Part shown: positions 109 through 47,883 of the stretch, piece by piece
Position numbering within the stretch: position 1 is the first letter of the stretch
Layout: each line of letters starts with the position of its first letter
Assembly (NCBI RefSeq): GCF_022458985.1
Contig: NC_061779.1
Span: 11,234,501 to 11,298,500, forward strand
Direction of reading: 5' to 3'
Source: Mugil cephalus
Taxonomy: Eukaryota; Chordata; Actinopteri; Mugiliformes; Mugilidae
Length of the DNA stretch: 64,000 bases
Program-made: the position numbers and the translations under genes
Notes under the pieces: model-generated
Told to the model about the DNA's origin: nothing
What the model saw: only the letters and a program-made list of their open reading frames with translations
Database searches by the model: none

Positions 109-3100
109 GTACCATTACTACGGCATCGCAGTGAAGGAGACCTCCCAGTATTATGACGTGATGTACTCCAAGAAGGGAGCGGCGTGGGTGAACGAGACGG
201 GGAAGAAAGAGGTCACGAAGCAGACAGTGGCGTATTCACCGCGCTCCAAACTGGGGACGCTCCTGCCAGAGTTTCCAAATGTCAAAGACCTAAATTTGCC
301 TGCCAGCCTGCCAGAAGAGAGGGTAAACAGGAGTTTTAAAAGTCCATCCTTACAGCGCCTCCAACGCCCCCCCGCCCTTTCCCTCCCTCCCTCCTTCGCC
401 TCTCCCTCTACAGTCTCACCATCTCTGCGCCCCCTCTGGCTCTTTTATCTGCCCCGGGACCTTCCCTGCGTTTAGAGAGGGACCTTGAGGATTTATATGC
501 TGGCTCCTCACTAACTCTTAATCTTTTGGGGGAGATAATAAGATCTAGCGGTGGACAAAGGACAGGCACTAGCTGTCCGGCTTTTAAAAGGGGGGCCATG
601 ATTTTAAATGGTTTGTGTTTTGCTGATCTCTAAAGCTCGTTTTATATTACACCGCTCAAGCCTGGTCCTGTAACATGTATTTATAGGTTCACATGCTTTG
701 TTCAAGATTTATTTTCTTGTTTTTGCACCACTTTTTTTTTTTTCCCCCAAAAGAGAAAAAAAAAAAACGCTATTAGGTTTGTGATAAAATTAGATGCTAA
801 TGCTCCGTTGTTGCCCGTAGGTGTCAACCTTCATCATGATGTACAGAACGCACTGTCAGAGGATACTGGACACCGTGATTCGAGCCAACTTTGACGAGGC
901 AAGGTTTCCGTGAGTCCGTTTAGATTCTGCTGCCACAGAATCCGTTTCTGTAATAAACTTATTCCTGTGATATTAATGTGCAGGTCCAAAGCTTCCTGCT
1001 GCACTTCTGGCAGGGCATGCCGCCCCACATGCTCCCTGTCCTCGGCTCGCCCACAGTGGTGAACATCGTCGGAGTTTGTGACTCCATCCTCTATAAGGCC
1101 ATTTCTGGGGTGCTGATGCCCACCGTCCTGCAAGCACTGCCTGATAGGTGAGCACCTGTCTTCTATCGAATTTCAAAATCTGCTCTAACCAGAACTCAGT
1201 CTAGTTTGATTTGTTTACACCTGTCTCTATCGATATAAAGTTGTGTGAATTAAAGCATTTGCACTAACAGTACTATTATTTTAATTATCAAACTTGTCCT
1301 TATCAACATATTAGTAACTGCTTTTATTTAAGATTTGGACAAAACGTACACATCTATATTATACCGTGTCATACTGTTAAATAAAGAGGAGTGTGTGAAT
1401 TAATTAATTATTATCAAGTAATTGTCTGTTTCTCAAGAGTTGTTATCAGTCACCTAAATGCTTATTTAGCTGTCATACGTCCTCTGGCCCCATCTTCTTA
1501 AATAATAGAGATTTTCCTGCTCTGTCTGTCACAAAGGACAACTGTTGAGCAGAAAAGTTAATTTTAACATAGATTCATTTTTTATTTAACCAGGAAGATC
1601 CCATTGAGATTAAGAACCTCATTTTTAAAGATGCCCTGGCCAAGATAAGCTTCAGCAAAAAAACAAAGCAAATAAATACTAAGGAAAGATAACAAATTAT
1701 AAGCAGGTTATAAAAATACAAGTGCATATTGTGGAGTTGATCTCACATGATCTCAGTTTGGACTGAAAAAAGCTCATTGAAATGAACTCTGTTAGTTTCC
1801 AGTCATTTTGTAAACACACATTATTGTGTGGCTATATGTTAAAGCAGAAGAAGGTATAAGACGGGAGAATCTTCATTAGGAGGCGTGTTTAGACCAACAC
1901 AGAAAAAAATAAGATAATTAGATAGTCCTACAACCAATCACAGCTAGTTTATGGTGTTCAACTCTAAGGCGCTCAGATGATATGTAAGACTACGTTGTTG
2001 CTATTCTTCTGTCCATCAAAGCCAAAACCAAAACTCAGCAAATCTCTGCTGGAGCTTAATCAGCTCCCAAAGGAGTTACTTTTCCCAACCAACTACATAA
2101 GATCTTTGATAAATTACGGTACAAAGTGCAGAAGAATAATTTTTATAAAGATATTACACTTGAAAGACATGACAGGCATTTATTTGTTGAACTGTTCATT
2201 TGATACTTGATGAAACTTTAATAGGGAAAAAACAAACATTATTAATCTATTATCTGTCCTCCCTCCTCCGCACAGTTTGACTCAGGTTATCCGAAAATTT
2301 GCCAAACAGCTCGATGAGTGGCTTAAAATAGCACTTCACGACCTTCCTGAAAACCTGAGGAATATCAAATTTGAACGTGAGTATAAAATACATCAACAAA
2401 TAGCTCTCGAAAACGAATGGCTCCTGTTTGTTTTTTTTGTTTGTGTGTTTTTGTTTACCTACATGTTTTTTCTCCTTGTTTTATTTCCAGTGTCGAGGAG
2501 ATTTTCTCAGATTCTCAAGCGGCAAACGTCATTAAACCATCTATGTCAGGTATCTATCGCGGCCTGAATGTTTTTTTTTTTTTTTTAATAAAATCCATAT
2601 GAAAGAACAAAGCCGATAAGGGATATGGGTGTTCTTGGGTACGTCATATTGTTGATTTATCTGTCCCCCCACCCCTCCAGGCATCTCGGACGGTGATAAA
2701 CAGCGCCGACATAACCTTTCAAATGTTGGAGGACTGGAGGAACGTGGACTTGAACAGCATCACCAAGCAGACACTTTACACCATGGAAGACTCACAGGAG
2801 GAGCACAGGCAGCTTATTATCCACTGTACGTACACACACTTCAGCTGATTCCACTCTTAACGCGCGTGAATGACACTTCACGTCCACATGAGAAACGCGG
2901 TGAGGGGACTATCATTCCCACGGCCGGCAGAGTCAAAGCATTATCGACGGAGACCAAAAGGTTAAACAAGTTCACTCTCCCCTCAAACACCCTGGGGAGC
3001 GTCTTGGATTCGCTGCGGCCTCGCTCCTCTGAATCAGTCCTGACGGGACCAAAGGCCACAGACACGTAGAAGCTGATGCATGATGATCGTGTTTGCACCC

Positions 3101-12995: not shown

Positions 12996-15900
12996 ATGGA
13001 CTTGAATACCGTCCTGCCGCAGCTTGAAACTGACGGAGTGGATGAAATTGAGAAGCTCCTGGAGCTATATAACCGAGAGGTGAGTTCGTTTTACATCAAC
13101 CAAAACAAACGGAGGCGCTAACGTTAGCTGGCTAGCTAGTTAGCTAGAGGGCTAGCCACCGGTGCGCTAAAGATCTAATTAGTCAACAAAGATGAGATGC
13201 TGACACTGTCTGCTGGTATTTAACAGGGGCGGATGTACACAACGAATCTATGAATGATCAATGAATGAATAAATAAACGAATGAATGAATGAATGAAGGA
13301 AACTGGACCATGATACGATGAAGCTGATGGTGCTAACGCTCCTTCCCCCACCAACATGATCTTAAAACAGTATCAGAAGCTTGATTACTTTCTTCCAGGT
13401 CTCCCTGAATCATTTACATCCGCTTCTAGGGTCTTTGTGGTTTACGTGCACCCGTAAATGCTTAATACGTGATACAGACTGAGTTGTGTTAGATGTCAAC
13501 AATGAGTGTCTCCTGTGTTGCAGAACATTCACACCTTCACCTTTGACCAGAATGAAGAAACCCTGAGACGAGTGAGTACCTGTTTTGTTTTGTTTTTAAA
13601 AAAGTATGTTTATTGATTTTTAACATTTCACAAATGATAAAAACAAAACACTACTACTAGTAATACTACACCTCGAACAACTCGGCTCACAAACAAAAAC
13701 AGAAGTCATGAATGACATTAAAGTCTAAGTTTAAGGAAGCTGCAAACCCCACATTTCCATTCTTCTATAAATCCGCTGCTCAATACGGATGCAATGTTCA
13801 GACCAAAATATGTCATAAAGAGCTTCATATTGTATGAAAAATGTCATCCTTATCATGCAGCATATCTGTCAAATAATCAAGAGATACGTATTGTATTACA
13901 ACATTATGCCACTGGGTTCTAGAAAACAACTTCTCCATTGTCCAGTTCAGTAGAGCTGGTGTAAAATGTTAACATACTGTTCAGTTTCCCTTTGTATTTC
14001 TTAGTACTGAGGCCGTGTAAGTACCTGTTACCTCTGCAGGTTTGTTATTAGAGGATAAAAACCGGAGCCTCGCTCTATAATTACACAATGTCTCTTGTTG
14101 AATCATTTCAGAAGCTGTGTCAGAGCGTCTTGACGGTGCTCGGGAGGCAGGTTCAGCCCAGCTGTCAGAAGACATGTCTGGAGACCCTGCGCATCCTCTC
14201 CAGAGACAAGCGCGTCCTTGCGCCTGTAGCCACCAGGGAGGGCATGCTGATCTTGGGAGGGATGGCGAAGCTGAACGCCGGAGAGGAAGGAGGAGATCAC
14301 CAGGAGCACACGCAGTCAGAGGAGGAGGAGAGGGTGGTGGTGGAGGCCTTGAAGTGCCTGTGCAACGTGGTGTACAACAGCCCCGCGGCTCAGCAGGTCA
14401 GTGTGGATGTGCAGCTGGTTCAGGGCCTGTGCGCCAACCTGCGCACCGCCCGCACCTGGCACCACGAGGTGGGCCTGTTCACGCTGCGCCTTCTCTTCCT
14501 GCTGTCCGCCCTCCGGCCTGATGTCAGAGGGGTTTTGAGGAGGGAGAAGAACGCAGTGAAACTACTGACGGAGGTGCTGGAGCACACCCTGGACGTGAGC
14601 TGGGTCGGTCCCTACGAAACCGCCCGTCCGGATCCTCAGGGCCTGCCCCTGCCCGCGGAGGAGAATGAACGAGCAATGGAAGCACTGAAAGCCTTGTTCA
14701 ACCTCACGCTGTCTCCAGCGGGCGGTGAAGTGAGTATGCTGTGGTTATGTGATGTAGTGTTACAGCAGAGGTTGCGAGTCATTGTTATGAGGAGATGTGG
14801 AGGGGTTAAGAGCAGGTCAGGAGGTTTGAATTACTGCAAATGTGGATTAGGCCGTCCTGCATTACAATAAGACATGTGACTGCAAGGCAGCCAAATAAGA
14901 TCTGCCACAAGGCCGGGGTTTCTGAGCAAGACACTCTACCTAATGTACTGTCATGGCACATTAGCACACTAACTCAGTCTAAGCATAAATTAATTTAAAG
15001 AAATGCATGTTGCCTATAATTTGATTTCATTATAAAATAGACAACTAATTAGAAACCGATTAAACGCCATAATGTCACGTTTAAGTTGAGTTACAGCTGC
15101 TGTGTTTCTAGACTTAAAATGAAGCAGCTTGATTTTATTATATGGACGTGTATACACTCGCCACTTTATTAGGTACACCTGCTCAATTGCTTGTCAACAC
15201 AAATAGCTAATAAGTCAGTCACATGGCTACAATTCAATGCATTTAGGCATGTACAGGTGATCACAAAGCTCATATCATCTGAAACTGGTATCTTGAACAT
15301 GATAATCAGTTCACTGTACTCCAGTGGCCTCCACAGTCACCAGATCTCAACCTTTGTGATGTGGTGGAGCAGGAGATTTGCATCAGAGATGTGCAGCCAA
15401 CAAATCTGAAACGACTGCGTGATGCTGTCGTGTCAATATGGACCAAAATCTCTGAGGAATGTTTCCAACACCTTGTTGAAAGTATGTCACGAAGAATTAA
15501 GGCAAAAGGGGGCCAACCTTTCACTAGCAAGGTGTACCTAATAAAGTGGCCAGTAAGTGTATTTGCTCTTGTGATGAGTATGAATATAATGTATAAATCA
15601 GTATTCAAATATTCAGAAGATATACACACACATGCCGAACACTATATAATGTCTAGAAAGAGAATGATATTCGGTACACAGGCTTATTTTGCTAAATGTT
15701 GTTCATTATTTTGCAACTAAGGCTTGATTTTGGAAATTCACTGTCAACCCTGCTTATAATATTTTGAGCAATTACAACTGGGAAGGACGCACGTCTCCAA
15801 AGGCAGCACCTAACACAGTGTAAGTCCTAATGACGTTTAGGTCTTAGGCTCGTGTTCATCCCCGCTCTCCTCTTAGATGTCCACTTTTTTTCTCCTCCCT

Positions 15901-18900
15901 GCTTCTGTAGCTTTTTAGTCGAGGTTTAATGCCTCATTAAAAATTAAGGATCCCGTTTCTGGAGATAGGACTTCGCCTCCACTCTAGTGCCCTTGTTTAT
16001 TGGTCTTTTCAACAAAAATGTCTGTTTGGAGTCAGTGTTTTCTGCTTGTTTCGAAAGGACGACGACCACCAGTACAGAGTCATTGCAGCCATCCTGCGTC
16101 ACCTGTTGATGCTGAAGACTGAGACGGAGGAGAAAACGGAGGAAGCACACAGGTAGGAATCAACAACTCTTTTTTTTTTTTTTTAATACACGACACCTTG
16201 CGCTTTAGGATCCATGAAACAAATTGCGCGAAACCCCTAAAATAGCTTAGTCCCACGATGCTTTAGCTGCTCACAGTGTGTACGTGTAATTTGAAACCAA
16301 TTTGCATGGATAAACACACACGCAAAGTGCACCCGCCGCTCTGGAGATTAACTAGATCCGCAGGAAAATAATCTGCCGTGGTTTTCCTGAAAACACCCTC
16401 CTAGACAAGAAGTGAGAGTTTCTGGTAACAGGCTGATGTGTTGCGGGAAACGCTTCAGGTTTCGGGTGTGGGCTTCGCTGTGAGCTCTTGTAATGGAGCG
16501 GCAGGATCTTGTTCATATGGTAATTGGATGCAGGAATTCCAAGAATGCGAAGCGGCAGCCTGAAATTTAAACAGCGTCATATAAAAGTGACTGATGATCC
16601 TCTTGACCTGTCAGACTGGTGGCTGAACGGTCATGGGAGTTTGACCCAATGACCAACGTAATTGGATGTTTGAACGCGAGTGTGAGACAGAGAATAGAGG
16701 AGAGGCGCATCGAGGAGGGAGGTTGTTTCTAGAAAACAAACGTCTAATTCATAAGATGTTTGACAGTATTGATTTGTTGTAATGTACAAGCACACCCCTC
16801 ACTCTAATTTACGATATTACTAAGACTTTTGTTGTCTTAAAGCCATAACATTATGACCGACGGGTCAAGTGAATAACACTGATTATCTTGTTACAATGGC
16901 ACCTGCCTGTCACTGCATGGGAAACGTTAGTGGAGTGGACAGATAATGAGCCACATGGACACGATCCAGTGTGTTACACAGTACCTTTAAAAAGCCATGC
17001 ACCTATAGGAGTGAAGGCCTATAGGTGCACGAGAGCTTCCCTGGTTCAGTTTGCTGAAAAAGATAATGCTGGTTCTCATCGAAAGGTGTCAGAACACACA
17101 GTGCATCACAGTTTGTTTTGTATGGAGCTGTGTTAACACAGTCAGGGTTTCAATGTCGCCTGCTGTATCAGAACTGAACTGGTGGCCTGGCTGGGTACCA
17201 GTGTGTCACTTGGATGTGGAGCACATGGCACGGGGATGCCAGGAATACCCTCTTGCCATAGAGATGAACCTAATCTGCAGCAATGTTCAGGTGGTGGTAC
17301 GTGTCAAAGTGTCATCCACATAAATGCCAGGATCCAGGTTACCCAGAAGATCATGTCCTCTTAATGAGATCAGCGTTATTCACTTCACAGGTTGTTGGTT
17401 TTAATGTTGTGGCTGATCGGTGTATCTTTATGAACTGAGAGAGTCTTGATGACTCCCAGGAGTAGATTTCTTACTATCAGTGATTGCTCTCCTAGAAGCT
17501 TAGGCTCTTTTTGTGTATCTGTCATTAAATTAAGTTCATGTTTATGGCTCTAGATTAAAATCCCATCTTGTGCAAACTGTCACCCCTTCAGAAGCTGTTA
17601 ATCAACTTATTTAACCCTTCGCTCCCTTTGGTAGTTCCATCTCACCTCCTGAATATTTTATCCTTATCATAAAAGATTTACCTAAATAAAATAAATACAT
17701 GTTTTCACCTCCAGCCATGCTGTCAACTTGCTTAACAACCTGCCTGTGTCCTGCCTGGACGTGTTAATTGACCTGCCCGTCCAGGGAGGACAGGAAAAAT
17801 ATGGCGGAAAGAACATGGACGTGGTCCAGGTGTTACTAGACTTCATGGAGAAGAGAATTGACAAGGTAAAGTTCGTCCTTTGTGGCAAATACAGGGGGCT
17901 CCTTATCTCAGGAAACTTTTATGTTACATCTTAGTGTATACATGAAGTGACTCCACAGAACTTAACAGAAACAATTTGAACCTAGCAGGTTTATTGCAGG
18001 TCAGAGTTGAGATGCCTGACTTGTTAGTTTTATTTACTGCATATGATTCAGTCTCTTGTCTCCCATCCTGTCTTTAACTCGTCATCCTTTATATTATCTG
18101 TGAGTGTGTTACTGCTCGACGTCTGTCTGTTCAGACCGTGAAGTGTTTGTGGGCTTTTTCACTCCAAGCAGGGCTCCAACTACAAAGAGGGTCTGACTCC
18201 GGTGCTCAGCCTTTTGACTGGAGGGTCCAGACAACACAGGGAGATCCGCAGATACATCAAAGCTCAGGTAAAATGTCTGCTGACGTTAGATTAGAAGGGG
18301 GTTTTGATAAAACGTGTGACACGCTTTTTTATGTGGTAGCATGGCCATTAATATTCACCTTGAATTCACTAAGTTGCAGGAATTTTTGACCCTTCCTCTT
18401 GACAGAACTGGTGTTACTCAGTCGACATGCTTTTTAGTTCTGCCTCCAAATCATTTATTGGAGTTACAAGCAAATTAGACTCGACTACAAGCCTCAAGTA
18501 TTTACCATTTAATGTGCTTTTTAGCTGAAACTTCAATATATCTGTATAATCCCCGCCACAACGTGATGCTGCCACCCCCGTGCCTTAGAGCTGGGATGGT
18601 GTTCTCCATCTTGCGATCGTTCCCCTTGTTCCTCCTACAGTTTAATTTTGGTTTCATCTGTAGAGTCGAGTGGTTTTACTAGATACTTATGACCTTTTAG
18701 ATGTCAGATGCTCTCGTTGTTTGTGTTTAAGCAGCTTGGTATTATAAGCATTTATAAGGGAAAATTTTGAAAACGTTTTTTTGTTTTTTTACCAGGTGCT
18801 TCCTCCTCTGAAAGATGTGAAAATCAGGCCAGAGGTTGGTACCACCATCAGAAACAAGCTGGTTCGTCTGATGACACACGTGGACATGGGAGTGAAGCAG

Positions 18901-21414
18901 ACGGCTGCAGAGTTTCTCTTTGTTCTCTGCAAAGAAAGCGGTGAGTGGAGAGGCACCTTTCTGGGTGCCGTTTATGAAATAATAATAATAATATTAATGG
19001 TTCGTCTTCACACATCAACATGCGTATTTGTCTCCTTGTAGTGGACAATCTGTTGAAGTACACAGGATATGGAAACGCGGCAGGACTCCTGGTGGCTCGA
19101 GGACTTCTTGCCGGAGGCAGAGGAGAGACTGAGTACTCAGAAGACGAAGACTCGGACACAGAGGAATACAAAAATGCCAAACCTTTGTGAGTACCCAGCA
19201 CGGGAGCTGGACTAAACTGGCGACAGACACTCTGTACATTAATAATGTTTTTTTTTTTGGATGTGCTTTTTTCCCCCAGCATCAACCCCATCACCGGTCA
19301 CGTGGAGGAGCCGATGCCGAACCCCATTGAAGAGATGACGGAGGAGCAGAAGGAGTATGAAGCCGAGAAACTGGTCAATATGTTCGACAAGTTGTCAAGG
19401 TAATAACACGAGTAGAAAATGCTCAGAAATGTGTAATCTGATCATGAATTTAAAAGAAATCAGCCGACGTGTCTAAATGTACGAGAGGATCCTGAAATAC
19501 AGGAAGTCTGAAGGTTTATCAGGTGAGGAGCCCTCCACAGTGTTTTGATACATGACGTAATCACACCGATCCCCAAACATTTACCATGAAGGAACAGTCC
19601 CGACTTTGGTTCCCACCACCAAATTCACCAGGTGTATAGAGAGCTCTGAGCGTCGGGTGATTCCAGATGAAGCTTCGACAGCATTAACAGGATTTTTCTT
19701 TTGGAGTAGAGGACAGTGACGCCAAGAAGAGCCGTGTCTAATCCAGACAGCATCAATACTGTAATATTCTGTTGAGGTGGGAGATATACAAAGGTGTTAC
19801 CCAGGCAACCAGAGGCGGTAACGGGCACTAGCGACCAGATGTATCGGACAATCTTGGTGGACGTCGCATCAGTGACTTCGATAGTTAAACTTCTCTAACC
19901 GTCATTGCAACTACTCACTTGCTTCCTGTGTTCACTGTAGGTCTATTTAAGGTCCGGGTCCTGAACATGTTTGGACTTATCTTGTAAAATGGGAAAACAA
20001 AACATGCACATAAAATTCCACAGAACTTTTTATTGACTAATGAACTTTCTGTCAGATGATTACCGGCCTTTTTTGAACAACCGTTGCTCCACCTGCTCGT
20101 ATTCTTCATATTATTTACAGTTTCCCCCAGAAAAGGGTCCTGCTCTATTTATGTTGACCTTTACTTAGCGAGCAGAGGCCACCGGTCGCCGTGCAAACAG
20201 TGAGCTCGCTCGCTCCCTGCCAACCGATTCATCATAGGAAGAATCTCTAGCCGTTAGATGCGGCTTCAATTAGGGCCCGGGCTTCCAGCGCGCCACCGCA
20301 TTCAGCCCGGAGTAAATGGGAGCTGCCGGCGCGGCGTGGCAGCATCATTACCGCCGCTCCGTTAATTATCACCTAATTGGCACACACAGTCGACTTGTCG
20401 GTTCTGGTTTCCTTTATGTGTCGCATTCAGGGTTTTTAATAACACATGTCCTGACTTTATTCTCCCTTGTATTTGAGGAGCCAATCACGGCTCAGACAAG
20501 GAGTGGACTGAGACAGAGGCCGAAACTAGACAAAGCAATTTGGGTGGAACGTAGATGAAGAGGAAGAGACACACACGGGGGGTGAATAAATGCGCGCGCG
20601 TTAAGAAAGCCGACCTCGTCATTGTCGAGCCGAAGAGGGCGTTGGGCCGTAATGAGGCACGTGCGCCCAGGAGAGGAAGATTCCTTTCCAGGGCTGCCTC
20701 CTCTTTCTTCTCCTCCTCGGTAAAGGGTGATGACAGAGAGGTGCTTCCTTCTTAACGGCTCTAAGGGGATCGGTCAGAGCTCTGCAAGAATGTGCTCCTC
20801 TAACTACTTAACTGGTCCTCCAATTAGCACATAGTCTGAAACCCCCACCCCGTACACCTGCCAGACCCCCGGTCATCATCTGTAGCTGCTGAGGAAAAAA
20901 GATTTCCTCTCTTCTGCTCTAATTGGTGGAGATGATGTTACATGTTTTTTGTTTGTATGTTTTCCTGGTTCTTATAGTCCCTGTTGACTTTAACCAGTGA
21001 TATGTGCCACAAGTTTATTTATTTGTTTATTTATTTGGCCCCGCCTTTCCCCACTATTGGAGCCCCCCCCCCCCCCCACCACAATAAATTACGTTTAATT
21101 CCAGGAATTAGTCGGCGTTAAACGGCCGCTTGTGTTCGAGTCTGTCGAAATGAATGCAAACCGGTCGGTTTTATATCTCCGGCGGATGATTCTCTGATGA
21201 CTCATCTTGGGGGCAGTGGTGACACACGGTGCAGGTATAATTGGATTAGGGTGAAGGGGGAGTCGTGGCTTTGAGGAGATTAGCCGGAGCGCTGATCCTG
21301 TAATTAAACTGCCACAGGGAAGGAGGTGAGGAGAGGCAGAGAGGATGGCCAGAGAGGGGCGAGTGTCCATGAATCGGGGGAAGGGGAGGGGGGGTTGTTG
21401 AGTGAGGGTCCTCG

Positions 21415-21466
<52 letters not shown>

Positions 21467-21695
21467 GCCCTCTTTAACACCGTCCACAGATACAAAAGGG
21501 TCCTGAGAAGAGTTTTGTCTCGACATTTCGTGGAACGCGACCATTCAGAAGTTTGCGGCTTGATGTCCTCGTCTTTGTGTCCGCAGGCAGAACGTGATCC
21601 GGCCCATGGGCGTCAGGCCCGACGGGACGCTAGCGCCTCTCGAGGAAACACTCCGCGACCCACGTGAGGACGACTCGGCCTCAGACTCGGACTAG
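12996..21695 (+). CDS. ric8b: RIC8B, G-alpha chaperone / guanine-nucleotide exchange factor
   Basis: RIC8B folds and stabilises nascent Gs-class alpha subunits (Gs, Golf) in the cytosol and acts as a GEF. Exons: 12996-13079, 13524-13571, 14112-14729, 16058-16152, 17715-17865, 18172-18267, 18796-18940, 19042-19186, 19280-19399 and 21587-21695, coding 536 residues. The armadillo-like fold is visible through [133 protein letters not shown] and [19 protein letters not shown]. The start [14 protein letters not shown] is preceded by the CRE and matches the family's N-terminal helix. Wording such as [18 protein letters not shown] and [20 protein letters not shown] is closer to RIC8B than to RIC8A, and rfx4 next door agrees with the human RIC8B locus. 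Introns carry two MITEs. Confidence 0.96.
15151..15561 (+). mobile_element. Tc1/mariner-derived non-autonomous element (ric8b intron 3)
   Basis: Inverted ends are ...CACTTTATTAGGTACACCT on the left and AGGTGTACCTAATAAAGTGG on the right. The interior still encodes the Tc1-type segment [10 protein letters not shown] (about 15330-15360), the region before the last catalytic acid of Tc1/mariner transposases. The frame is too short and broken to make an enzyme. Related end sequences (TTATTAGGTACAC) occur at about 30743 and 32945. Confidence 0.75.
16840..17424. mobile_element. MITE, 'GATCGGTGTA' terminal-repeat family, copy 1 (ric8b intron 4)
   Basis: The right end reads TTTTAATGTTGTGGCTGATCGGTGTA, and the left end AGCCATAACATTATGACCGA is its decayed inverse. 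Internal inverted words (GTGAATAACACTGAT at about 16870; ATCAGCGTTATTCAC at about 17370) support one element. A second copy lies at 42044-42455. The interior shows no intact transposase. Tc1/mariner-like origin is recalled for this common fish repeat, not proven here. Confidence 0.7.
21416..21464. repeat. (GT)n microsatellite in last ric8b intron
   Basis: About 24 uninterrupted GT units, 120 bp before the final ric8b exon. Any open frame across it is repeat-encoded Thr-His. Confidence 0.95.
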
Positions 21696-24193: not shown

Positions 24194-27100
24194 TCAGTTG
24201 CTCGGGCTGGACGATGCGGAGCTTTTGCTGTCTGTCTCGGAGTCGGTCTCTTCGCTGCCGCTGCTGGATCCTCTTTGAACTCCCGGTTTGGACCTGGATG
24301 TCTCCGTCCTGCCTCGGGGCTCTGATGTTTCTCTGCTCTGTGAGGGAGGACTGCTCACCACTGCAGGGACGCTCTGCAGACAGGAAGTTTGTGCATGTTT
24401 TGTTTATCACCAGAGCTACTGTGCTAAAGCTATTTTTAATTACACATCTGATGAATTTCCTTATTAAGAGCCTTTTAACGGGCTCTGATTTGGAACCTAC
24501 CGGTGCTTCCTGACTCCTCATCAGCTCTTCGATCTCGTGGCTCCAGCCGAGCATTTCAGCGAACCTCCGGACAGTGTCCTCCAGGTCCCCCAGCTCCACG
24601 TGGTCCCCTCTCCGCAGCGGGACCTTCTCGAAGGGACCCACGGCGTGTCGGTTCAGGAGGAGGCGAGGCACCGTGGAGCGCACCGTGTTCACCAGGCTGG
24701 CGAACGGCTCGATCTGAAAACATAACACACTCGTTAGCTCAGGTTCAGGCTGCAGAAACGTCTGTTCGGCGTTCAAACGCTGGCGTTTACCTGTAAAGAC
24801 GTGCCCATGATGATCAGCAGGTCAGCTTTAGGGAAGTCTTTCGTGTGGAGGAAATATTTCTGAGGGAGGTCTTCTCCGAAGAACACGACGTCGGGTTTGA
24901 CTGTAGCCGAGCAGAATGTGCACACGGGCACGTTGCCGTTCATTATGGCGAACTGAGAAATAAAGAAATGCAGAAAACGTTGGCGTGCTGTAAAATACAG
25001 GGAACTGGTCTAGGATGTCTGATGAGATACCTTAGCCTCCTCAGCGGGATACGGAGTGTAGCACAGGTGACAGGACGCTGTGGCAAAACTACCATGAGCC
25101 TCCACGAGTTTGTCGTCTGGGATGCCGCACACTGTGAAGGAGGTTGTTTAATGTTATGATGGACACTAAGGATACACACTCTATGATATAAAACATTAAC
25201 AGGTTGGAAAATGGCCTTTTGTAGATCCCCACAACAACAACAACAAAGACATCTTATTTCTAGACTCTTCATTTTAAACAGTTGATATACAGTATGGCTA
25301 AATCTTTAAAGTTTCCCTTGGGTGTTTTTTTAATGAAATATCGACATTAATAGAAATCAAACACTCAAGAGTCTCGGTATACGATGGCTGTGCTTTGAAA
25401 CAACACACGTTTCTTATAAGACAGATCCATCAAAGACCTACAGACTAAACTTAAACTCATATGTGATTCCAGATTTACAGAAGAGTATTAGGGCCACCCA
25501 TTAGGAAAAAAAAAGGAGGAAGATTCTTTTTTTCCATCATGCACATTGAGAAAAGTTGAAATTTCGAGAGAAAACAGACAAAATTTTGAGAAAAAAGACA
25601 AAATTTCAAGAAAAGTAGAAAGACGTTTAAACCTGGAGTACCGAGTGCATATGGTACCGCCATTACTCAGTACTGCTGGTTTAAACGTCTACTTTCAACT
25701 ATTTTTTCCTCAAAATTTCCTTTTTTTCTCTCAAAATTTCCACTTTTTTTCTCAAAGTGCATGATAAAAAAAAAAAATACCTCCTCTCATTTTTTCCATA
25801 ATATGAATAAAGAAAAAAAGTGTATATGTATTAATTGTATCCCTTAAAGTTCTCACATTTCTCCAGTCCGTCTATGTTCTGGGTGTACATCCGCAGCAGC
25901 AGGCCTTTGTGATGAAGCATGCGGATGAAGTAGTGTATGTAGTTGGGCCGGTGGCTGCCGGGATACAGAGCCTTGGCCAGGGAGAAGAAAGGCTGCGGGT
26001 CGTTGGAGAAGTAGTCGATGTTGAAGATGGCCTCTGGGTAAGGGATGTTGTATTTCTCCACGTTGGCGTAAAGACCCGTTCCTGGAGTCCTGAAGAAAGC
26101 GAAGAAAGGTGCGCGCGTTTTGGCAACATTTTGAAAAACGTGCAGATTCACACACCAGTAGAGAGATGAAGATGAGACTGCAGAGACAAACCTGAAGTCT
26201 GGGATGCCGCTGGCTGTGCTGATTCCTGCTCCGGCCACCACCACCACGTTCTTGCAGCGGCCGAGCTTCACCAGCCGAACCACGGAGGCTAAACCGCTAC
26301 GGGACGACGGCTTGGCAGCAAAGGTAGATGGACCACCCTGATCAGACCTGGACTCAGACGACTGCATGGGATCACTGATAACGTTTATGAAAAAATCACA
26401 AACATGATAAGAAGTTATTAAAGTATTTCATATTAAACAGTTTATACGACATAATGATCTGCAGACAAATTCCAATCCCCCTTTTAAGTTACTTATGTAA
26501 AGTTATTTATTTTTTCCCCTTTTTATTCTTCATTTCACTACCTTTCTCATCATCTGATAGTAACGTGGACGCTTATCGTTATAATATATTAAGAAACAGT
26601 TTTAAATAGTTTCTTATGTTTCAAGATAGGAGCAGAGAGTCGAGCTTCTATGAACCTTTGATCTCAACATCTGGGGCATCAGTTTTTGGATTACATGAAG
26701 AGCCTAAAGCAGAGGTGTCAAATATAAGGCCCGGGGGCCAAAACCGTTCCGCCAGAGGGTCCAATCTGGTCCGTGGATGAATTTGCAAAAATTACACCAG
26801 AGATATTAGCTGAAATTTTTCAACAAAATAAGAAATTGGACTTGCACTTCTTAAGAAATTTACAGTTGTTCATTTTTTGCACTAAAGCTGTCGTTATTTT
26901 CCAGGAAATGAGCTGTTATGTTACTGGTCCGGCCCCATTGAGCTCAAACTGGGCTGTATGTGGCCCCTAAACTCAGATGAGTTTGACACCCCCGGCCTAA
27001 AGAATAGTGCTGCTTTAAAGGGAAAGGTTGCTCACCCAAGATAAAGATCAGTGTATGACTTTTGAAAGTAACCTCACTTTCATTTAAATGTGCATCAACA

Positions 27101-27368
27101 TGTGTAAAAAAAAATATACCGTCTGCCTATATGAGTGTAAACCTCGTCCTCACCTTGCAGCTGAACCGTCCTGCCCGCTCACACTCATCTGGCTGAGGTC
27201 CTGGGCCAGAGCCGAGTCCGCCTGCTTCCTTCGCTGTTTCCCATACGGGCCCGGGACGGGGTCCTGGGGCTCTGTGGGACTGGGGTGTCTGGCCTGGGAG
27301 CTGGAGCTGCGGGTGACTCTGGTGACCTGGGGGGCTTTTTTATTCCAGCTGGACCTGGACCTGTTCAT
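24194..27368 (-). CDS. sirt3: SIRT3-type NAD+-dependent protein deacylase (sirt3 or sirt3.2 paralogue)
   Basis: Class I sirtuins remove acyl groups from lysines using NAD+; SIRT3 acts in mitochondria. Coding exons, in transcription order: 27368-27154, 26374-26192, 26089-25857, 25131-25031, 24952-24791, 24713-24501 and 24373-24194, giving 428 residues. NAD-binding [16 protein letters not shown], substrate/NAD loop LYTQNIDG-type ([11 protein letters not shown]), catalytic His in LVEAHGSF, zinc CxxC pairs SCHLCY and VCTFCS, then [26 protein letters not shown] and RLLLNR are all present in order. [14 protein letters not shown] and the lack of SIRT2-type inserts point to SIRT3. The first about 75 residues are Arg/Ser-rich with few acids, compatible with a mitochondrial presequence. 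The C-terminal tail of about 60 residues is Ser/acid-rich ([15 protein letters not shown]) and is not in mammalian SIRT3 as I remember it. The start is the first ATG; an in-frame stop precedes it in the 5' exon. Confidence 0.93.
25514..25785. mobile_element. Palindromic (snap-back) MITE in sirtuin intron
   Basis: The left half (AGGAGGAAGATTC...ATCATGCACATTGAG...AAGACGTTTAAACC) is the imperfect reverse complement of the right half (GGTTTAAACGTCTAC...CTCAAAGTGCATGAT...ACCTCCT). It forms one large hairpin centred near 25650, with A/T-rich arms of about 130 bases. No coding capacity. Confidence 0.7.
26710..26994. mobile_element. hAT-type MITE upstream of second sirtuin coding exon
   Basis: Short inverted ends CAGAGGTGTCAAAT and AGTTTGACACCCCCGG bracket 285 bases. 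The ends match the GTGTCAAA...TTTGACAC form typical of non-autonomous hAT elements in fish (recollection). The internal open frame is short and lacks a transposase motif. It sits in the intron between exons 27368-27154 and 26374-26192. Confidence 0.7.
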
Positions 27369-27376
27369 CCCAACAC

Positions 27377-30300
27377 CTGTGAACAGCAGTAGAAGAGAAG
27401 AAAATTTAGTTGAGACATCAGTCGGGATAATCGAAGCTTGTTTTTACTCTGCGTTTCACCCGATTAAAGCGAGATTAGTCTAAATAACAACTGAATATTT
27501 TATTTCCTTAACGGTGCAGTTCGCCGTGCATCCACGACACGGACTTGTCTTCATTTCCCCCTGTTCAGCGTCCCATATTTAAAAAGCTGTTACACTGAAA
27601 TCATTGTGGCGTCCTTTTCTCTTTAGTGCTTTTGCACAGAGGGAAGCTGAAATGTTTTAAAACTGTCAACGCTTGAACAAAAGGTAATGGCTGCAATATA
27701 TTTAGTGCGACCCCCCCCCCCCCCCAGCAGCTATGCTAATACAGTCCACAGCTGTGGCAGCTTTACTGTTCAGGCTGAGCGGAGGGTAGAGCTGAGAAGT
27801 GTGAGGAGGGGGGGTGAGAGTTAAAAAGAGGGGTGGCAGAGGTGAAAGAGAAGCGTAGATTGACTGTGTGTCAACAAACCCAGCTGGGAGAGAAAAGAGG
27901 ATGCCCCCTAACGGCCCCTGCGAACTGAGAGAAAAACGGGGAGGAGGGGGGGGGGGGGGTTGTGTGTGAAGAGATAAATGATACGGAGGCGGGATTCAAT
28001 AAAGCAGGAGCAGAGGAGTGGGGGGGGGAGCTTCTTCTCCTCTAAAGCTATTGTAGGCCTTCAAACAACTACCATGAGGGATGAGTGTGAGTGATCAGGG
28101 AGAGGGGGCGAGCTACGAAACAAAGGAGCTACAACCCATAAAAACAGAGGGTGGGGTGGGGTGTGACGGGGCAGGGGGGGGGGAAGCAGGAAGATAAGAC
28201 ACACTTTCCTCCAGAAGCACCTTATCGCCCTCCGGAGGGGATGGAGACGAGCTGAAGCTTAGAGCTAATGCACAGTTTAGCTTTTAAGAAACTCGATCTG
28301 CAAAAAAAAAAAAAAAAAAGTAAAGCATCTGGAATCTCACATTCTCTCAGTGCTTTTTCATTTCAGTCACACGTCTCCTCTTGCTTTTTTTCTCCCTTAT
28401 TAGAGGCCGAAGCGCTCGCGCTACTGAAGAACTATTAAAAAACAGCGGGAGGCCGAGGGTCCCCGCTTTTGTCCGGACTCCCCTCAGGAAAAACCCACTT
28501 GCCGAGTACAGGCAATAAATCAGCGGCCGGGGTTATTAGGACGGTGAGGTTAACACGTCAACGTGACCGCGACCCCTCGCACATCGTCTTCCTGAAAATA
28601 AATAAATAAATAAATAAATAAAACACTTCAACAACAGTCTGAAACTAATTAGTTATCTTTATGAGATAAAAACCGCCTTTGACTGTTTCGAATATTCACT
28701 TCTCCGTCCGATAAAGGCCCAAATGGGGGGCACAGGTGCCATTATTCTTCTTTAATGACAAATAAATCCCCGTATAAATGACAAAAGGCTTTAAAAGGAT
28801 TTGAGAGCCCCTCCCTCCCTCCCTATAGTCGAAAACCTGAGCCCAGTGTGTCGCAGTACCGGACCACCAGGGGTGTAGCTGCTCACATGAGGGTTACAGT
28901 TTATCTAATTAGAGATGTCCCACAACACTGCAAACACATCAGTGATCACAATTGACCCCCACCCCCCCATCCCCCACTCCAGAAAAAGTCGAGCGGATTA
29001 ATAATCCTTTTAAAAACATCACAGGCTGACACCAAAGGTCAAACACCCACAGCTCAACAGTTAGTGAGAAGTTAGCGACAGTACGATCTTTTCTACTTTG
29101 CGAACAACTATTTCCGTACAGATACAGATTGTGTGCATCCATCCCCAACCAACCTTACGTGTTCTTGACGTTTCTCAGGATGACATGAGTGGGTAAAACC
29201 CAGAGGTGGCGCCCCCGAGCATCGGCTGCGTCTTAAAGGAGATTTGGTTAAGTTTAATGAGGGGCTTTTCCCCTGCAGCCCCACCATTTAACCCTCCACT
29301 TACAGACGAGTTGAGGATGGCCGACTTTGATCTCTGGAGCCCCCCCCTCCCTCCCTCCTCCTCTTCCTCCTCCTCCTCAACACAGGGACGTCAACCGGCA
29401 GCCTAGTCACCATGGAAACCTCTTCATTAGTTATTTGGAGAGGCAGCAGCTCTGTGTCCTCCCTCCCCACCTGCTCGCTAATGACATATCACTCTGTGTA
29501 GCATCTTTGTTGGACCCTCAATTGACACAAAGCAGCGAGTCCTAATTTGTGTTAGTGTATTGTTTGCTCACACAGAAAGGAAGGTGGGTGGTGGTGGAGG
29601 GCCGAATTAGAACGGGCTAAGTAATGACTCCTGTCCGGTTCGTCTCCGAAGATGAACTGGGCCTAAATTAAGAACCAATCAACCGTCAATAAAACTCCCG
29701 TAAGAGTTCAGGGTTGTGAAAACGGTTTTCAAGACATTTCAGACGCGGCTCTTTAAAATGAAATGTAACTCACTGTATAAACTGGATATTCAAAACAAGC
29801 AACCAAAAATAAAAGCCATCCTATTAATTATCCTATTTTTTCAAATTAACATAATGTCTATTCTCTCTATCTCTATTAAAATGCCATAAAATGAAGGAAA
29901 TTACAAAGTAAGAACTATTGCATCAAACTTACAACCATTTACAAATAAATAAAACAGTAATAAATCCTCTTGTGAGTGGTGTCTTACTAAAATTAAGTAA
30001 CTAATTGAATGAATTGATTAATATGCACAATTCATAATCAAAAGGTCAGTCTGTCAAGTCTGTAGAAATATTTATTATGTTAACCTTATTTTAAGATTTA
30101 AAAAGGCATTAATGAGGACTTTTAACTTTTGGATGGCCGTACATTTATGCTCCTAATTGATGATAGAAATTCCCTCAGAAAAACAAGGAGGACCTGTTCC
30201 CTGTATCCGATCACAGTGAGGTCACACTGCTACCTGCTGGAGCCTGTCGCTCATTACACATGAAAGACATCAGCACATTTTAGGAAACTGTCAGTGTCTC

Positions 30301-31067
30301 AAATGGGTTTGTTACTCTTATAAGTTAGTTTGGAGCTTCACAAAGAGCTTTTTTTTTAACAATCAACATAACACAGTTAAGATTAGAAGAAAATAGGGAT
30401 AGTTTCACCTACACAGAGTAAACGTCTTTCCCTTCCTGTTGGATTAACTGTGTGCACAGACTATAAATGTTTTCTTTTGCTTTTTTTCCCTGTTGTATAC
30501 TTCTGCAAACTGACCAGCAGAGTGTTATTTTAAATGAGTGCATACATTTTATTTAGAGAAAGTAATTCAAAAAAGTGTGTAGAAGACCTGGATATGCACC
30601 TTGTTCCATGTGTTTTAACAAAACCTTAAGACTATCTCTTGTTAGATGGCAGCAGTGTGACCTTATCTCACTTTATCTAAAGTTTATTGTCTACTACAAT
30701 CCAGATCAGTGATTATATGTATGCTCACTTGCCAGTTCATTAGGTACACTAAAGCATTGACTCCATGAACAGACACACTTTAGTGTTTAATTCAGTGCTC
30801 CTCAATGATCACACAGTTGAATTACAACCTTTCTGGTGGTGTTTCCACATAAATTGAGCAGTGTCCCTTTGAAAACAGTCCTCTAGTGTGAACTCACTGA
30901 AAATGTAGGGGTTCATTTCCCTGGACAGGCACATGGACTCGTTACATCCCATTCAATGTGTAATAGCAAAAACAACGTTTTTCAGCTACCATTGGCGTTT
31001 AAATATAACTGATAATTCGCAATAATGCCATGAATGGAGGTATTTTTGCAGCACTGTCGTTATCTAC
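27377..31067 (-). other. Large first intron of the sirtuin gene
   Basis: No coding exon is recognised. It contains G/C homopolymers (27712-27726, 27947-27959, 28020-28029), an (AAAT)n run at 28598-28622, and complex non-repetitive stretches at about 28370-28580 and 29200-29500 that could be conserved regulatory DNA. An element end with TTATTAGGTACAC-like sequence lies near 30743. Confidence 0.5.
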
Positions 31068-31340
31068 CTGTTTCTTTCCGCCTCTGGATGATGAACACAC
31101 GGCGACGACAGACTTCAGACTTGGCTGCTGGGCCACTCGGGATGTTTTACATCCGTAAGGAAGAAACCAGCTGAGCTCCTTCCGCGCTAAAAAGAAAAAC
31201 TGAGGGTTGAATCCACCGTCAAGCCTGATTTAATATTTACTTCTGAAAAGCATGAAGCCACATTAACTGAGCATGCAGGCTGTGGCGTTTCAACAAGCGG
31301 GAGCTGCTGTCACTGTTGTTTCTGCTGCTTCCGGGCGGCG
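31068..31340 (-). other. sirt3: Probable 5' non-coding exon and promoter-proximal region of the sirtuin gene
   Basis: The minus strand reads ...CGGAAAGAAACAG then GTAGAT, a donor at 31067. It joins in frame to the acceptor at 27376 eight bases before the ATG. Upstream in that frame is TAA at 31147-31149 with no ATG between, so the exon is non-coding. It contains ATGTAA (31147-31152), a start-stop mini-uORF if transcribed. The 5' border is unknown; 31340 is a rough limit. Confidence 0.5.
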
Positions 31341-35216: not shown

Positions 35217-36898
<1,682 letters not shown>

Positions 36899-38684: not shown

Positions 38685-40737
38685 TTACTCCTCAGGGGCA
38701 ACCATAATCACCGGTCCAGAAGAAACCACAACCCTTGATTTGTCCTTTTCTTGGAGAACATCTCTCTCTGCAGACACACAGACAAACACAGTCAAGTTTC
38801 AGATTGTTGTTTCTGAATTGTATAGATGCACGATATAAATTCATCTCTTACTTTTCCTGTAGCATCCTGGTTCACAGTTGTGGCCTGCGCACACAGCTGT
38901 GCTGCAGTGAACGCACATCTGAGGAAAGAAGCAAGTGTTGGTAAAGAAATACAACAGCATACGATGCAGCAGTGTAAAGTCAATTAATATACTGTGTATG
39001 TGTGTATATATTACATATTCTCTCAGGGGCTCCAATGAAGCAGGATCCACAAAGGTAAACATTTTGAAAAGGAAGCGTTTGAAGCGACCTGGGAGTTCGA
39101 CACCAGTGACAGGAATCAGAGCAGACAAGTAACGATCATCCCTGTATGGACATCTGGATAGAGAGAAAATAAAACATATTATTTTATATATTATACATTG
39201 TTTGTGTCAGTAGACAAATAAATAAAAAGTGAGAATGATTAACCACAAACGAGATGATGCAAACTGATATTTTTAGTTACCCGTCCACCAGTATGTCCCA
39301 CTGGGGCATGGCGTGAGGATTGGGGGTTGTTGTTGTCCAGCAGCGACCCAAAGTCAGGACAAGACTTGGATCTGTCATCTCAAGAAGCTCAATCTCCACA
39401 TACACAGGATCTCTCAGTGGTTTGGTCACAGGGAACTCTGCATCCGTATAGTAGGAGGTAAATGCCGCTTCCACTGCGAAAGCAGAGACACCAGTTATTT
39501 TGACAGCCAACATCATGAAATCATCCACAAACAGAGCGCTTTGGCCAAGTGGACCTGTACTTACCTTGATCGCAACCCTTCGTACCGCATACACCGTTGG
39601 CCAACCTCATTACTACTGCAATAGGTCCCAGAGCAGCGACTGGTAGAGGAGGATTATCTGATGGGGCGACTTCTATAACCAGACTTTCAACAGTGGTGCC
39701 AATGTATCTACACTGGAAAAGCACACTGAAAAAGAGAACTGGTATTATTGAGCTTGTTCACACCTTCATTCTGATAACATACAACTGATGATCACACAGG
39801 ATCGCCTACTCATAGTGGCTGTCTCTGGTAATGGGTCCATATGGTCCAACCAGCACTTCATATGAGGAAGTCATCCTGTTCTCATAGACTATAACACCAG
39901 GCTCCTCCTACAAAAAGACTGAATTTAGCATCTGGAATAATAATATTCAGAAAAAGTCACCTCATTTGTTGAAAAGAAAAGGAAATTAAGGCCTTACCGT
40001 GACAATGGAACCACAGGAAGAAACAGGAAACTGGTAGATGGCAAAGTCTGAATTGGAGTCAACATGTATACAGCCCTGACCTTGTCCCAAGAGTGTGATT
40101 GACTCCAGGTCAATGCTGGGTAGAGTCACATCTCTAGCTACTACAACAATGAACTGGGCGTCCTTGGTGCACTGGACTGTCACTGAAGGGACAAAACCAG
40201 GCAGTGGGTTAAAACACTGCACATGGTTGACCAACTGAACATACTTTTCCTCCGGTGTGAACATTCTTTTAGTTTTTGTGTTTGCAACTTGAAAGGTACA
40301 TGTGAATCAATTAATCTGAAGCAACCTGGGAAAAGTTCATTTTTTTGGGTGGGGTGGTGGGGGGGATAAAGAGAAAGACAGCAAAACCCCACCTGCTCGT
40401 CCAAGTGGCACTCTCTGCCGTCAAAGCAGCAGTCTATGGCCTCGCATTCGGCTGCAGAGATATCAGGGGCACCACATGGGACTCTCACATGTCTCGCCAC
40501 CTCACATTTCTGAACGGGAGGTTGATTTGGTACATTTGGCCTCTGGGGCTGAGGGATGCTTGGCGTCTTAGCATACTGAGGAGCATTTGGCGGTGAACGA
40601 GGTGGAGGAAGAGGTGGGGGCTGGTAGTGAGAAGCAGGCTTCTGCCACAGTGAACTCTGAGCCTCCACCTCTGTCCAAACTAAGCATCCTAACAGAGCGA
40701 CTGCCACCAAAGAGGTGGCACTCCGGCACTTTGCCAT
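38685..40737 (-). CDS. Choriogenin-H/ZP4-like egg-envelope protein, copy A (frameshifted at exon 1/2)
   Basis: Fish ZPB/ZP4-type proteins are secreted from liver or oocyte and polymerise into the egg coat. Exons in order: 40737-40393, 40182-39998, 39907-39810, 39725-39565, 39473-39281, 39153-39015, 38918-38852 and 38767-38685. Exon 1 carries a signal peptide (SLVAVALLGCLVWTEVEAQ), a short Pro-rich stretch and a trefoil/P-domain (CGAPDISAAECEAIDCCFDGRECH). Exons 2-7 form the ZP module (VTVQCTKDAQFIVVVARDVTLPS, VLFQCRY, GRCWTTTTPNPHAMPQWDILVDGCPY, FKRFLFKMFTFV, CSTAVC). The tail has a basic site (RKKRD) and hydrophobic patch VVVSSGPVIMVAP; there is no transmembrane anchor. Summed exon length is 1271, one base short of a multiple of three. 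Compared with copy B, one T is missing in TGCCACTTGGACGAGCAG, so normal splicing puts TGA at the junction. It could be a pseudogene or a homopolymer sequencing error. Confidence 0.85.
39001..40200. repeat. Near-identical duplicated segment, copy A (partner 45181-46380)
   Basis: Line-by-line comparison at a constant offset of 6180 bases gives six mismatches and no gaps in 1200 bases. The mismatches lie near 39264, 39477, 39866, 39988, 40021 and 40186, so exons and introns are about equally conserved. Similarity ends abruptly after ...GGGACAAAACCAG at 40200. Confidence 0.95.
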
Positions 40738-40796
40738 GGTTTCACAGCTGTGTGACCTGGACAGCCCCCAAGTGCACAGTTTCTGCCTCTGGTTAC

Positions 40797-40803
40797 ATTT
40801 ATA
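40797..40803 (-). promoter_or_regulatory. TATA box of ZP copy A
   Basis: The minus strand reads TATAAAT, 60 bp upstream of the copy A ATG. The same box has the same spacing in copy B. Further upstream both promoters keep a GGGTCAT element (41-kb side about 40984; 48-kb side about 48048), whose complement holds the estrogen-receptor half-site TGACC. Confidence 0.6.
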
Positions 40804-42043
40804 TGTTCCCACACTTGACGTTTCAAAAACCCCACCCTACTATTCACATAAAAGTTCCCCAAAAAAATAAATAATAAGTGTACAATAAGTATTACAAGGG
40901 GTACAAGGAATCACGTGTCTTATCAGATCAGGTCAGTGTGTTTGACGACAGTTTGACATTATTTATTGACAAATCCAGCTCTGGGTCATAAAAACCTTTT
41001 TTTAAAGGTCCCTGTAGCCTCAAGATTTATCTGTCACCAAATGTTTATTTTGCTAGCACACAATGATCTTATGTCTGAACCTGCAAATAGGTTTTCCATA
41101 ATATGCCCACACTAAGGTCTGTGTATATTTTTGTCCGGCTTTGCAACATGCTATGATCACATTCATGCTACTATCCTTTAAACACAATCACACAGGAGTT
41201 TGTTCCACCGACAGGTTCGAATTAAGACAAACATGCTGCAGTCAAAATATATCTGTACGTGTATAAGGACTTTTGTAAATATATACTTTGGTACAACTAA
41301 CCTGAGCTATGGAGGTAAAAGTCTAATATGTTGAAAAAAAAAAAATCTATTTGTTACTCAGGTTTGACATGAATGAAAAAATAATTACCACCTTGTCAGT
41401 TTAAACTTGGAAATGGCCCCAGTTTAGGACAAGGCTGGCAGGTTTGTAATAACAAATAACAAGCTTTAACAAAAAGAGGATTAAGAGTCTAATGGGAACA
41501 AAAAGGAGACACAGGTAAAGACTAACGAGGAGGAGAAGTAAAACAAGTCCATAACCAGAATATAACAACAAGACTGTATAAATCAATTTGTCCTCAAAAA
41601 TATATATAATATTTAAATAATAACACACAGTCACACAGGATAAAACATGTAACACTATGGTTACAAACCATAAAACGACCGTAAACCTGGCTAACTATAA
41701 AGCTAACTTTATAGTTAGCTAGGTGACTAAAGGTTTAACTTCAGCATGATGTCTTTCAGCCTGAAAGACTGGAGCATTTAGGTAAACTTAACTAAATCTA
41801 CATAAATATATTAAAGAGTGGGACTGTTTAGACAAAACAAGGCTCAGATCTGATAATCTAAGATAAATTATAATCCTTTCATTTATCCCACAGTGGCTTG
41901 GGGAAGTACTGAGGAGCCTTTAGTGGTGGAGGGGGCTGGGTCCATTAAACTAAACTTAAATGTCAGCGATGTAGGGCAACAAACTTATTTTTTTTTTTCC
42001 AATCAATTAATCATCCACTAAAAGTGTAACTGTGACAGACATT

Positions 42044-47824: not shown

Positions 47825-47883
47825 GGTTTCACTGAAGTTTGACCCGGACAGTCCCTCAGTGTAAAATCTCCGTGTGCTGCTTC

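What the first reader, a model, noticed from the sequence alone, without database searches (positions are those of the whole stretch)
24194..31340. A SIRT3-type sirtuin sits beside ric8b: probable ohnologue of the RIC8A-SIRT3 pair (sirt3.2)
Seen: a complete SIRT3-type sirtuin is tail to tail with ric8b and followed by tmem263. Known (memory): the human RFX4-RIC8B-TMEM263 block has no sirtuin, while RIC8A is next to SIRT3 on chromosome 11. Inference: the ancestral RIC8-SIRT3 neighbour pair was duplicated with the genome, and fish kept the copy next to RIC8B that amniotes lost. A SIRT3-like vertebrate gene lost in amniotes has, as I recall, been named sirt3.2; this may be that gene and not the true sirt3.
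Basis: partly seen in the sequence, partly recalled or inferred. Interest (0 to 1): 0.75.

Follow-up and report, generated by a model that had tools for sequence, protein, structure and literature searches.

The report
Fish SIRT3.2 sirtuin gene beside ric8b
This is the fish copy of SIRT3.2, an already described second SIRT3-type enzyme gene that mammals, birds and reptiles have lost; its coding frame is intact, and the true SIRT3 gene sits elsewhere in the same genome.

Summary
A complete SIRT3-type sirtuin lies on the minus strand (coding exons 27376-24194, 428 aa), tail to tail with ric8b (ends 21695) and before tmem263. In a 50-protein tree it falls inside the SIRT3.2 clade of fish and frogs (support 100). 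Forcing it into teleost SIRT3 costs 226.5 log-likelihood units (AU p = 0.0003). The same genome carries a separate true sirt3 on another contig (C3:29.073-29.076 Mb, 69.8% identical to human SIRT3; the window copy is 53.6%) with DRD4 nearby. SIRT3.2, its RIC8B/TMEM263 setting, its early-vertebrate origin and its loss in amniotes are in print (2023, 2024). One prediction failed: sirt3 is not beside ric8a here; the two RIC8A-type genes found are at C10:27.46 Mb and C16:19.62 Mb. Human RIC8A and SIRT3 do share an 11p15.5 BAC clone, which fits an ancestral pair. One open point emerged: fish SIRT3.2 N-termini lack the hydrophobic make-up of SIRT3 leaders and conserve a nuclear-export-like motif, so the mitochondrial location should be tested in fish. 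Known gene; low overall interest.

The parts
27154..27376 (-). sirt3.2 first coding exon (ATG at 27368); N-terminal tail with basic start, GKQRRKQ patch and [10 protein letters not shown] (residues 54-63)
   Evidence: spliced frame; motif and conservation
26192..26374 (-). sirt3.2 exon with [14 protein letters not shown] (NAD site)
   Evidence: alignment to human SIRT3
25857..26089 (-). sirt3.2 exon with YTQNIDGLE
25031..25131 (-). sirt3.2 exon with catalytic His (VEAHG) and first zinc CxxC
24791..24952 (-). sirt3.2 exon with second zinc Cxx[15 protein letters not shown]
24501..24713 (-). sirt3.2 exon with EPFASL, LLLNR and the end of the enzyme domain
24194..24373 (-). sirt3.2 last exon: Ser/acidic C-terminal tail ([21 protein letters not shown]) and stop
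   Evidence: tail pattern in 106 of 120 listed SIRT3.2 relatives and 0 of 105 SIRT3 relatives (15 of that list dropped as too short)
12996..21695 (+). ric8b, tail to tail with sirt3.2
   Evidence: Pfam Ric8 E = 3.3e-34; Synembryn-B best; exon pieces
36575..36898 (+). tmem263
   Evidence: Pfam UPF0444/C12orf23 E = 9.2e-34
2603..2845 (+). probable rfx4 exon
   Evidence: weak: a 35-aa piece hits the RFX BCD domain at E = 0.0035, below Pfam's cut-off

Best explanation
The gene is the fish ortholog of SIRT3.2, the paralogue of SIRT3 that arose in early vertebrates, probably when a RIC8-SIRT3 neighbour pair was duplicated in a whole-genome duplication. Fishes and frogs kept it beside RIC8B, and amniotes lost it. 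It most likely encodes an active NAD+-dependent lysine deacetylase: the sirtuin core and its catalytic motifs are intact. Its N- and C-terminal tails are long, probably disordered, and unlike those of SIRT3. Shown here: intact frame, orthology, synteny, a separate sirt3 in the same genome. Taken from print: deacetylase activity (elephant shark only), amniote loss. Inferred: activity of this protein, and the genome-duplication step.
For: Tree of 50 proteins, 284 columns: window inside fish and frog SIRT3.2, UFboot 100, together with the Xenopus laevis protein that its source names 'sirtuin 3, gene 2' (P0289) and Sparus aurata P0024. AU p = 0.0003 against teleost SIRT3. Window vs own C3 sirt3 55.0%, vs human SIRT3 53.6%, vs Sparus 89.7%; C3 vs human SIRT3 69.8%. 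A second sirt3 gene at C3:29072663-29076276 with DRD4 about 18 kb away; print gives psmd13/sirt3.1/drd4 for sirt3.1 (PMC11172991; I did not check psmd13). The published SIRT3.2 setting POLR3B-RFX4-RIC8B / TMEM263 (PMC9897032) matches the window for RIC8B and TMEM263.
Against: In this genome sirt3 is not beside ric8a, so the pair duplication is not visible here. The six published diagnostic residues are in a figure that is not held. No expression or enzyme data for this protein were available. MTERF2 and CRY1 of the published setting were not found in the ORFs I looked through (by eye).
Confidence: 0.97

Rival explanations
1. The gene is the true fish sirt3 (or a 3R duplicate of it) that moved next to ric8b.
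For: Databases mostly call these proteins sirtuin-3, and human SIRT3 is the closest solved relative.
Against: A separate sirt3 exists on C3 and is much closer to human SIRT3 (69.8 vs 53.6%). Placement in teleost SIRT3 is rejected. Frogs and Erpetoichthys are inside the window's clade.
Confidence: 0.01
2. SIRT3.2 arose by a local or segmental duplication in early vertebrates, not by whole-genome duplication together with RIC8.
For: In this fish no sirt3-ric8a adjacency survives, and I did not compare the flanks chromosome-wide.
Against: The duplication is dated in print to the vertebrate ancestor (PMC9897032) and attributed to 2R (PMC11172991). Human RIC8A and SIRT3 lie on one 11p15.5 BAC clone (PMC1459182) and the paralogue RIC8B lies beside SIRT3.2.
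Confidence: 0.12
3. The fish SIRT3.2 protein is mitochondrial like SIRT3 (the published view; a rival to the novel case, not to the gene's identity).
For: Elephant shark SIRT3.2 co-localises with mitochondria (PMC9897032); a targeting sequence is predicted for sea bream Sirt3.2 (PMC11172991). The window's first acidic residue is only at position 33 and its first 40 residues hold 7 Arg/Lys. The helical hydrophobic moment of SIRT3.2 N-termini is not lower than that of SIRT3 (means 0.42 and 0.35, window 0.47).
Against: Over 112 teleost SIRT3.2 N-termini the first 30 residues hold a mean of 6.0 hydrophobic residues, against 13.9 in 96 teleost SIRT3 N-termini, and the first acidic residue is at median 9 against 38.5. 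An export-like motif is conserved.
Confidence: 0.5

Closest known systems
SIRT3.2 (vertebrate sirtuin; sea bream sirt3.2; database name Si:dkey-103i16.6 in many fish)
   Same: Tree position, RIC8B/TMEM263 neighbours, intact class I sirtuin core, presence in a genome with a separate sirt3.
   Different: Nothing found that sets this copy apart from other teleost copies (79-84% identity for the best 20 listed).
SIRT3 (sirt3.1; here the gene on C3)
   Same: Closest paralogue; three core exons of identical length (233, 101, 162 bases); same catalytic motifs.
   Different: 55.0% identity; DRD4 as a neighbour; in relatives, leader-like N-termini and no Ser/acidic C-terminal tail.
SIRT2
   Same: Class I sirtuin; an N-terminal nuclear export signal in human SIRT2 is recalled (from no call).
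   Different: 45.1% identity to the window protein; used as outgroup in the tree.

Membership tests
SIRT3.2 | falls in a clade sister to SIRT3, with fish and amphibian members | tested here: met
   UFboot 100; AU p = 0.0003 against teleost SIRT3
SIRT3.2 | flanked by RIC8B and TMEM263 | tested here: met
SIRT3.2 | a distinct SIRT3 gene exists in the same genome | tested here: met
   C3:29.073-29.076 Mb
SIRT3.2 | intact sirtuin catalytic core (GAGIS, NID, catalytic His, two CxxC, GTSL) | tested here: met
SIRT3.2 | six diagnostic residues of Opazo et al. fig. 6 | not testable with these tools
   figure not held (legend only)
SIRT3.2 | NAD+-dependent deacetylase activity and mitochondrial location (shown for elephant shark) | not testable with these tools
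   needs bench work
true SIRT3 | groups with teleost SIRT3 | tested here: not met
RIC8A-SIRT3 / RIC8B-SIRT3.2 ohnologue pair | sirt3 next to ric8a in the same genome | tested here: not met
   RIC8A-type genes at C10:27.46 and C16:19.62 Mb, sirt3 on C3; no RIC8 hit in C3:29035001-29115000; genome searches are lower bounds
RIC8A-SIRT3 / RIC8B-SIRT3.2 ohnologue pair | RIC8A and SIRT3 neighbours in human | tested here: inconclusive
   one 11p15.5 BAC clone lists RIC8A, SIRT3, PSMD13 (PMC1459182, passages seen); order and orientation recalled only

The most novel reading that the evidence does not exclude
Fish and frog SIRT3.2 is not primarily a mitochondrial enzyme but a nucleocytoplasmic shuttling deacetylase. 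Its N-terminal tail carries a conserved export-like motif ([10 protein letters not shown] in teleosts, LAKNINRLSV-type in half of the frogs examined), behind a basic patch in teleosts, in place of the hydrophobic leader of SIRT3. A Ser/acidic C-terminal tail was added in the fish line. Amniotes would then have lost a SIRT2-like cellular role, not a second mitochondrial SIRT3.
Probability: 0.35. Interest if true: 0.5.

Novelty: already known. Interest (0 to 1): 0.22.

Why it matters
As a gene it is ordinary: another teleost copy of a sirtuin described in 2023. It has practical use because databases mostly call both fish paralogues sirtuin-3, so fish studies of 'SIRT3' may measure either one; position beside ric8b/tmem263 tells them apart. 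The tail comparison makes one open point testable: whether fish SIRT3.2 works in mitochondria at all.

Tried and rejected
Candidate upstream exons at 31253-31241 and 31186-31068 (MLFRTRKELSWFLPYGCKTSRVAQQPSLKSVVAVCSSSRGGKKQ) look leader-like but do not join exon 27376 in frame as modelled. At least 12 of the 120 listed SIRT3.2 proteins carry predicted N-terminal extensions (by eye). Nine of these (15 residues or longer) were compared: a few pairs match weakly (12-29 residues, 38-67% identity) and none matches the window upstream of the conserved start, so I read them as UTR. The two window hits in that call (P0050, P0059) are the conserved start itself.

The lamprey protein P0342 came out as sister to SIRT3.2 (UFboot 96), but the AU test rejects neither SIRT3 (0.255) nor an outside position (0.054), so I draw nothing from it.

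The first N-terminus tally wrongly took P0046, P0050 and P0059 as extended and failed to place 39 proteins. I redid it and quote the redo for leader features; it trimmed 10 extensions, and one search showed that two short ones (P0049, P0116) had been left untrimmed among the 112. The motif and tail patterns were written after I had looked at the sequences, so their shuffle controls are not blind.

The AlphaFold2 model (of Siniperca P0001, not of the window protein) was of low confidence (mean pLDDT 60.0). It shows only that the tails are not confidently folded; I did no fold search.

Searches for 'dkey-103i16.6' and for sirtuin + SIRT3 + whole genome duplication + ohnolog found no paper. Loci L029-L031 (other sirtuin loci) were fetched and not analysed.

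Full report
What is there. The window is G000:C10:11234501-11298500 of a 634.8-Mb genome in 24 contigs. On the minus strand seven exons with AG/GT borders join into one frame of 428 residues ending at 24194. The ATG at 27368 gives MNRSRSSW...; by a loose pattern 97 of the 120 best relatives begin at a like start. Pfam finds SIR2 (E = 2.6e-56), and the best solved relatives are human SIRT3, ahead of SIRT2 and SIRT1. The alignment keeps the NAD site, the catalytic histidine, both zinc CxxC pairs and GTSL, so I expect an active enzyme.

Neighbours. The plus-strand gene ending at 21695 is RIC8B: Synembryn-B 350.8 bits against 305.7 for the best RIC8A chain, Pfam Ric8 E = 3.3e-34. The genes stand tail to tail with about 2.5 kb between them. 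36575-36898 (+) is TMEM263. An RFX exon is likely near 2603-2845, but its Pfam match is below the cut-off.

Which SIRT3. The first protein search listed 120 of 4836 matches; the names given are mainly 'sirtuin-3' or Si:dkey-103i16.6, and the organisms named are, as I read them, all teleosts. A human SIRT3 piece searched against the own genome found a second gene on C3 with higher per-exon identity (77, 69, 64, 63, 57% against 62, 47, 57, 54, 49%). I joined its five core exons. Its 120 best relatives (of 7055 matches) are mainly fish 'sirtuin-3, mitochondrial'. A third search with a short SIRT3.2 consensus reached frogs, Erpetoichthys, birds, mammals, sturgeon, lamprey and elephant shark (120 of 5796 matches listed).

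Tree. I used 46 of the 350 database proteins plus the window, C3, human SIRT3 and human SIRT2 (50 rows, 284 columns, LG+G4+I). The window protein sits with teleost, Erpetoichthys and frog SIRT3.2 (UFboot 100). C3 sits in teleost SIRT3. The elephant shark protein in hand (P0339) groups with SIRT3 (93). Forcing the window into teleost SIRT3 costs 226.5 log units, AU p = 0.000271. The window's exact neighbour among percomorphs is unresolved (55).

RIC8A test. The RIC8 search of the own genome shows three loci (10 matches): the window's ric8b and two RIC8A-type genes at C10:27.46 Mb and C16:19.62 Mb. No RIC8 match lies in C3:29035001-29115000 around sirt3. Of the 15 SIR2 matches, none is on C16 and the two on C10 are the window's. 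These searches score only the best candidates, so the counts are lower bounds. The predicted sirt3-ric8a neighbourhood is thus not seen in this fish. DRD4 is near sirt3 instead, as published for fish sirt3.1. In human, one 11p15.5 BAC clone carries RIC8A, SIRT3 and PSMD13 (PMC1459182; passages seen); that the two genes are adjacent and tail to tail is recalled.

Print. PMC9897032 (outline with abstract, passages and section 6 seen) named SIRT3.2, gave its setting as POLR3B-RFX4-RIC8B and TMEM263-MTERF2-CRY1, placed the duplication in the vertebrate ancestor and the loss in the amniote ancestor, and showed mitochondrial location and deacetylase activity for elephant shark. PMC11172991 (passages seen) gave tmem263/sirt3.2/ric8b/rfx4/polr3b in sea bream and assigned the split to 2R. 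The counted 'ric8' words, 3 and 2, are RIC8B where I saw them; RIC8A was not among the passages shown, and figures and supplements were not seen. I take P0024 to be the sea bream sirt3.2 of that paper from its name and tree position, without an accession check.

Tails and location. In 112 of 120 usable teleost SIRT3.2 N-termini (10 trimmed of predicted extensions, two short ones left untrimmed, 8 proteins left out) the first 30 residues hold a mean of 6.0 hydrophobic residues and the first acidic residue is at median 9. In 96 of 120 teleost SIRT3 N-termini the values are 13.9 and 38.5. A general export-signal pattern occurs in 103 of 117 SIRT3.2 N-termini (shuffles 0.05), 36 of 102 SIRT3 (shuffles 0.36), 10 of 10 ostariophysan or Arapaima and 10 of 16 frog SIRT3.2 (shuffles 0.14 and 0.16). 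A narrower pattern with a fixed S[VMIL] end occurs in 96 of 117 (shuffles 0.009), 2 of 102 (0.037), 9 of 10 (0.025) and 8 of 16 (0.022). I picked the 10 and the 16 for long N-termini, and some of the 10 are close relatives. The ten motif residues have a mean top-residue frequency of 0.88 against 0.61 for the rest of residues 1-95. A Ser/acidic tail pattern is in 106 of 120 SIRT3.2 proteins and 0 of 105 SIRT3 proteins (15 dropped as short); the frog proteins aligned lack that tail. Against the shuttling reading: the window's own N-terminus has no acidic residue before position 33 and is basic; the helical moment of SIRT3.2 N-termini is not below that of SIRT3 (0.42 and 0.35); half of the 16 frog proteins lack the narrow motif; sea bream is predicted to have a leader; and elephant shark SIRT3.2 is mitochondrial by experiment. 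A related fish result, SIRT3 mainly in mitochondria of yellow catfish hepatocytes (PMC9025889, passages seen), does not say in those passages which paralogue was probed. I therefore give the shuttling idea 0.35.

Verdict.

Noticed in passing
window 39280-40836 (-) and 45460-47881 (-): Two tandem egg-envelope-type genes: trefoil, ZP-N and ZP-C matches in the first, ZP-C and ZP-N in the second, with nearly identical pieces. They lie beyond tmem263, where print has MTERF2 and CRY1.
   Followed up: partly
window 61050-61289 (+) and 63372-63650 (+): A YccF-domain peptide (PF03733, E = 4.6e-11), and a peptide with only a weak Na/Ca exchanger match below the cut-off (E = 0.02), perhaps an animal CAX-type exchanger.
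   Followed up: no
P0342 (Petromyzon marinus): A lamprey sirtuin groups as sister to SIRT3.2 (UFboot 96), although print says cyclostomes lack SIRT3.2. The AU test cannot reject SIRT3 (0.255) or an outside position (0.054).
   Followed up: partly
G000:C10:27.465-27.467 Mb and G000:C16:19.619-19.622 Mb: Two RIC8A-type genes in this genome; the C16 copy looks the more diverged.
   Followed up: partly
G000:C3:29086-29099 kb: Long gag/pol-like retroelement ORFs near the true sirt3 (by eye, no search).
   Followed up: no
lists: Databases mostly name fish SIRT3.2 'sirtuin-3' (some 'mitochondrial') and fish SIRT3 'sirtuin-3, mitochondrial', which invites mixing the paralogues.
   Followed up: no
P0024 (Sparus aurata) residues 1-10: The sea bream SIRT3.2 start (MTGPGPAAIKK) looks like the neighbouring reading frame of the conserved start [11 protein letters not shown]; the published leader prediction may rest on it.
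   Followed up: no
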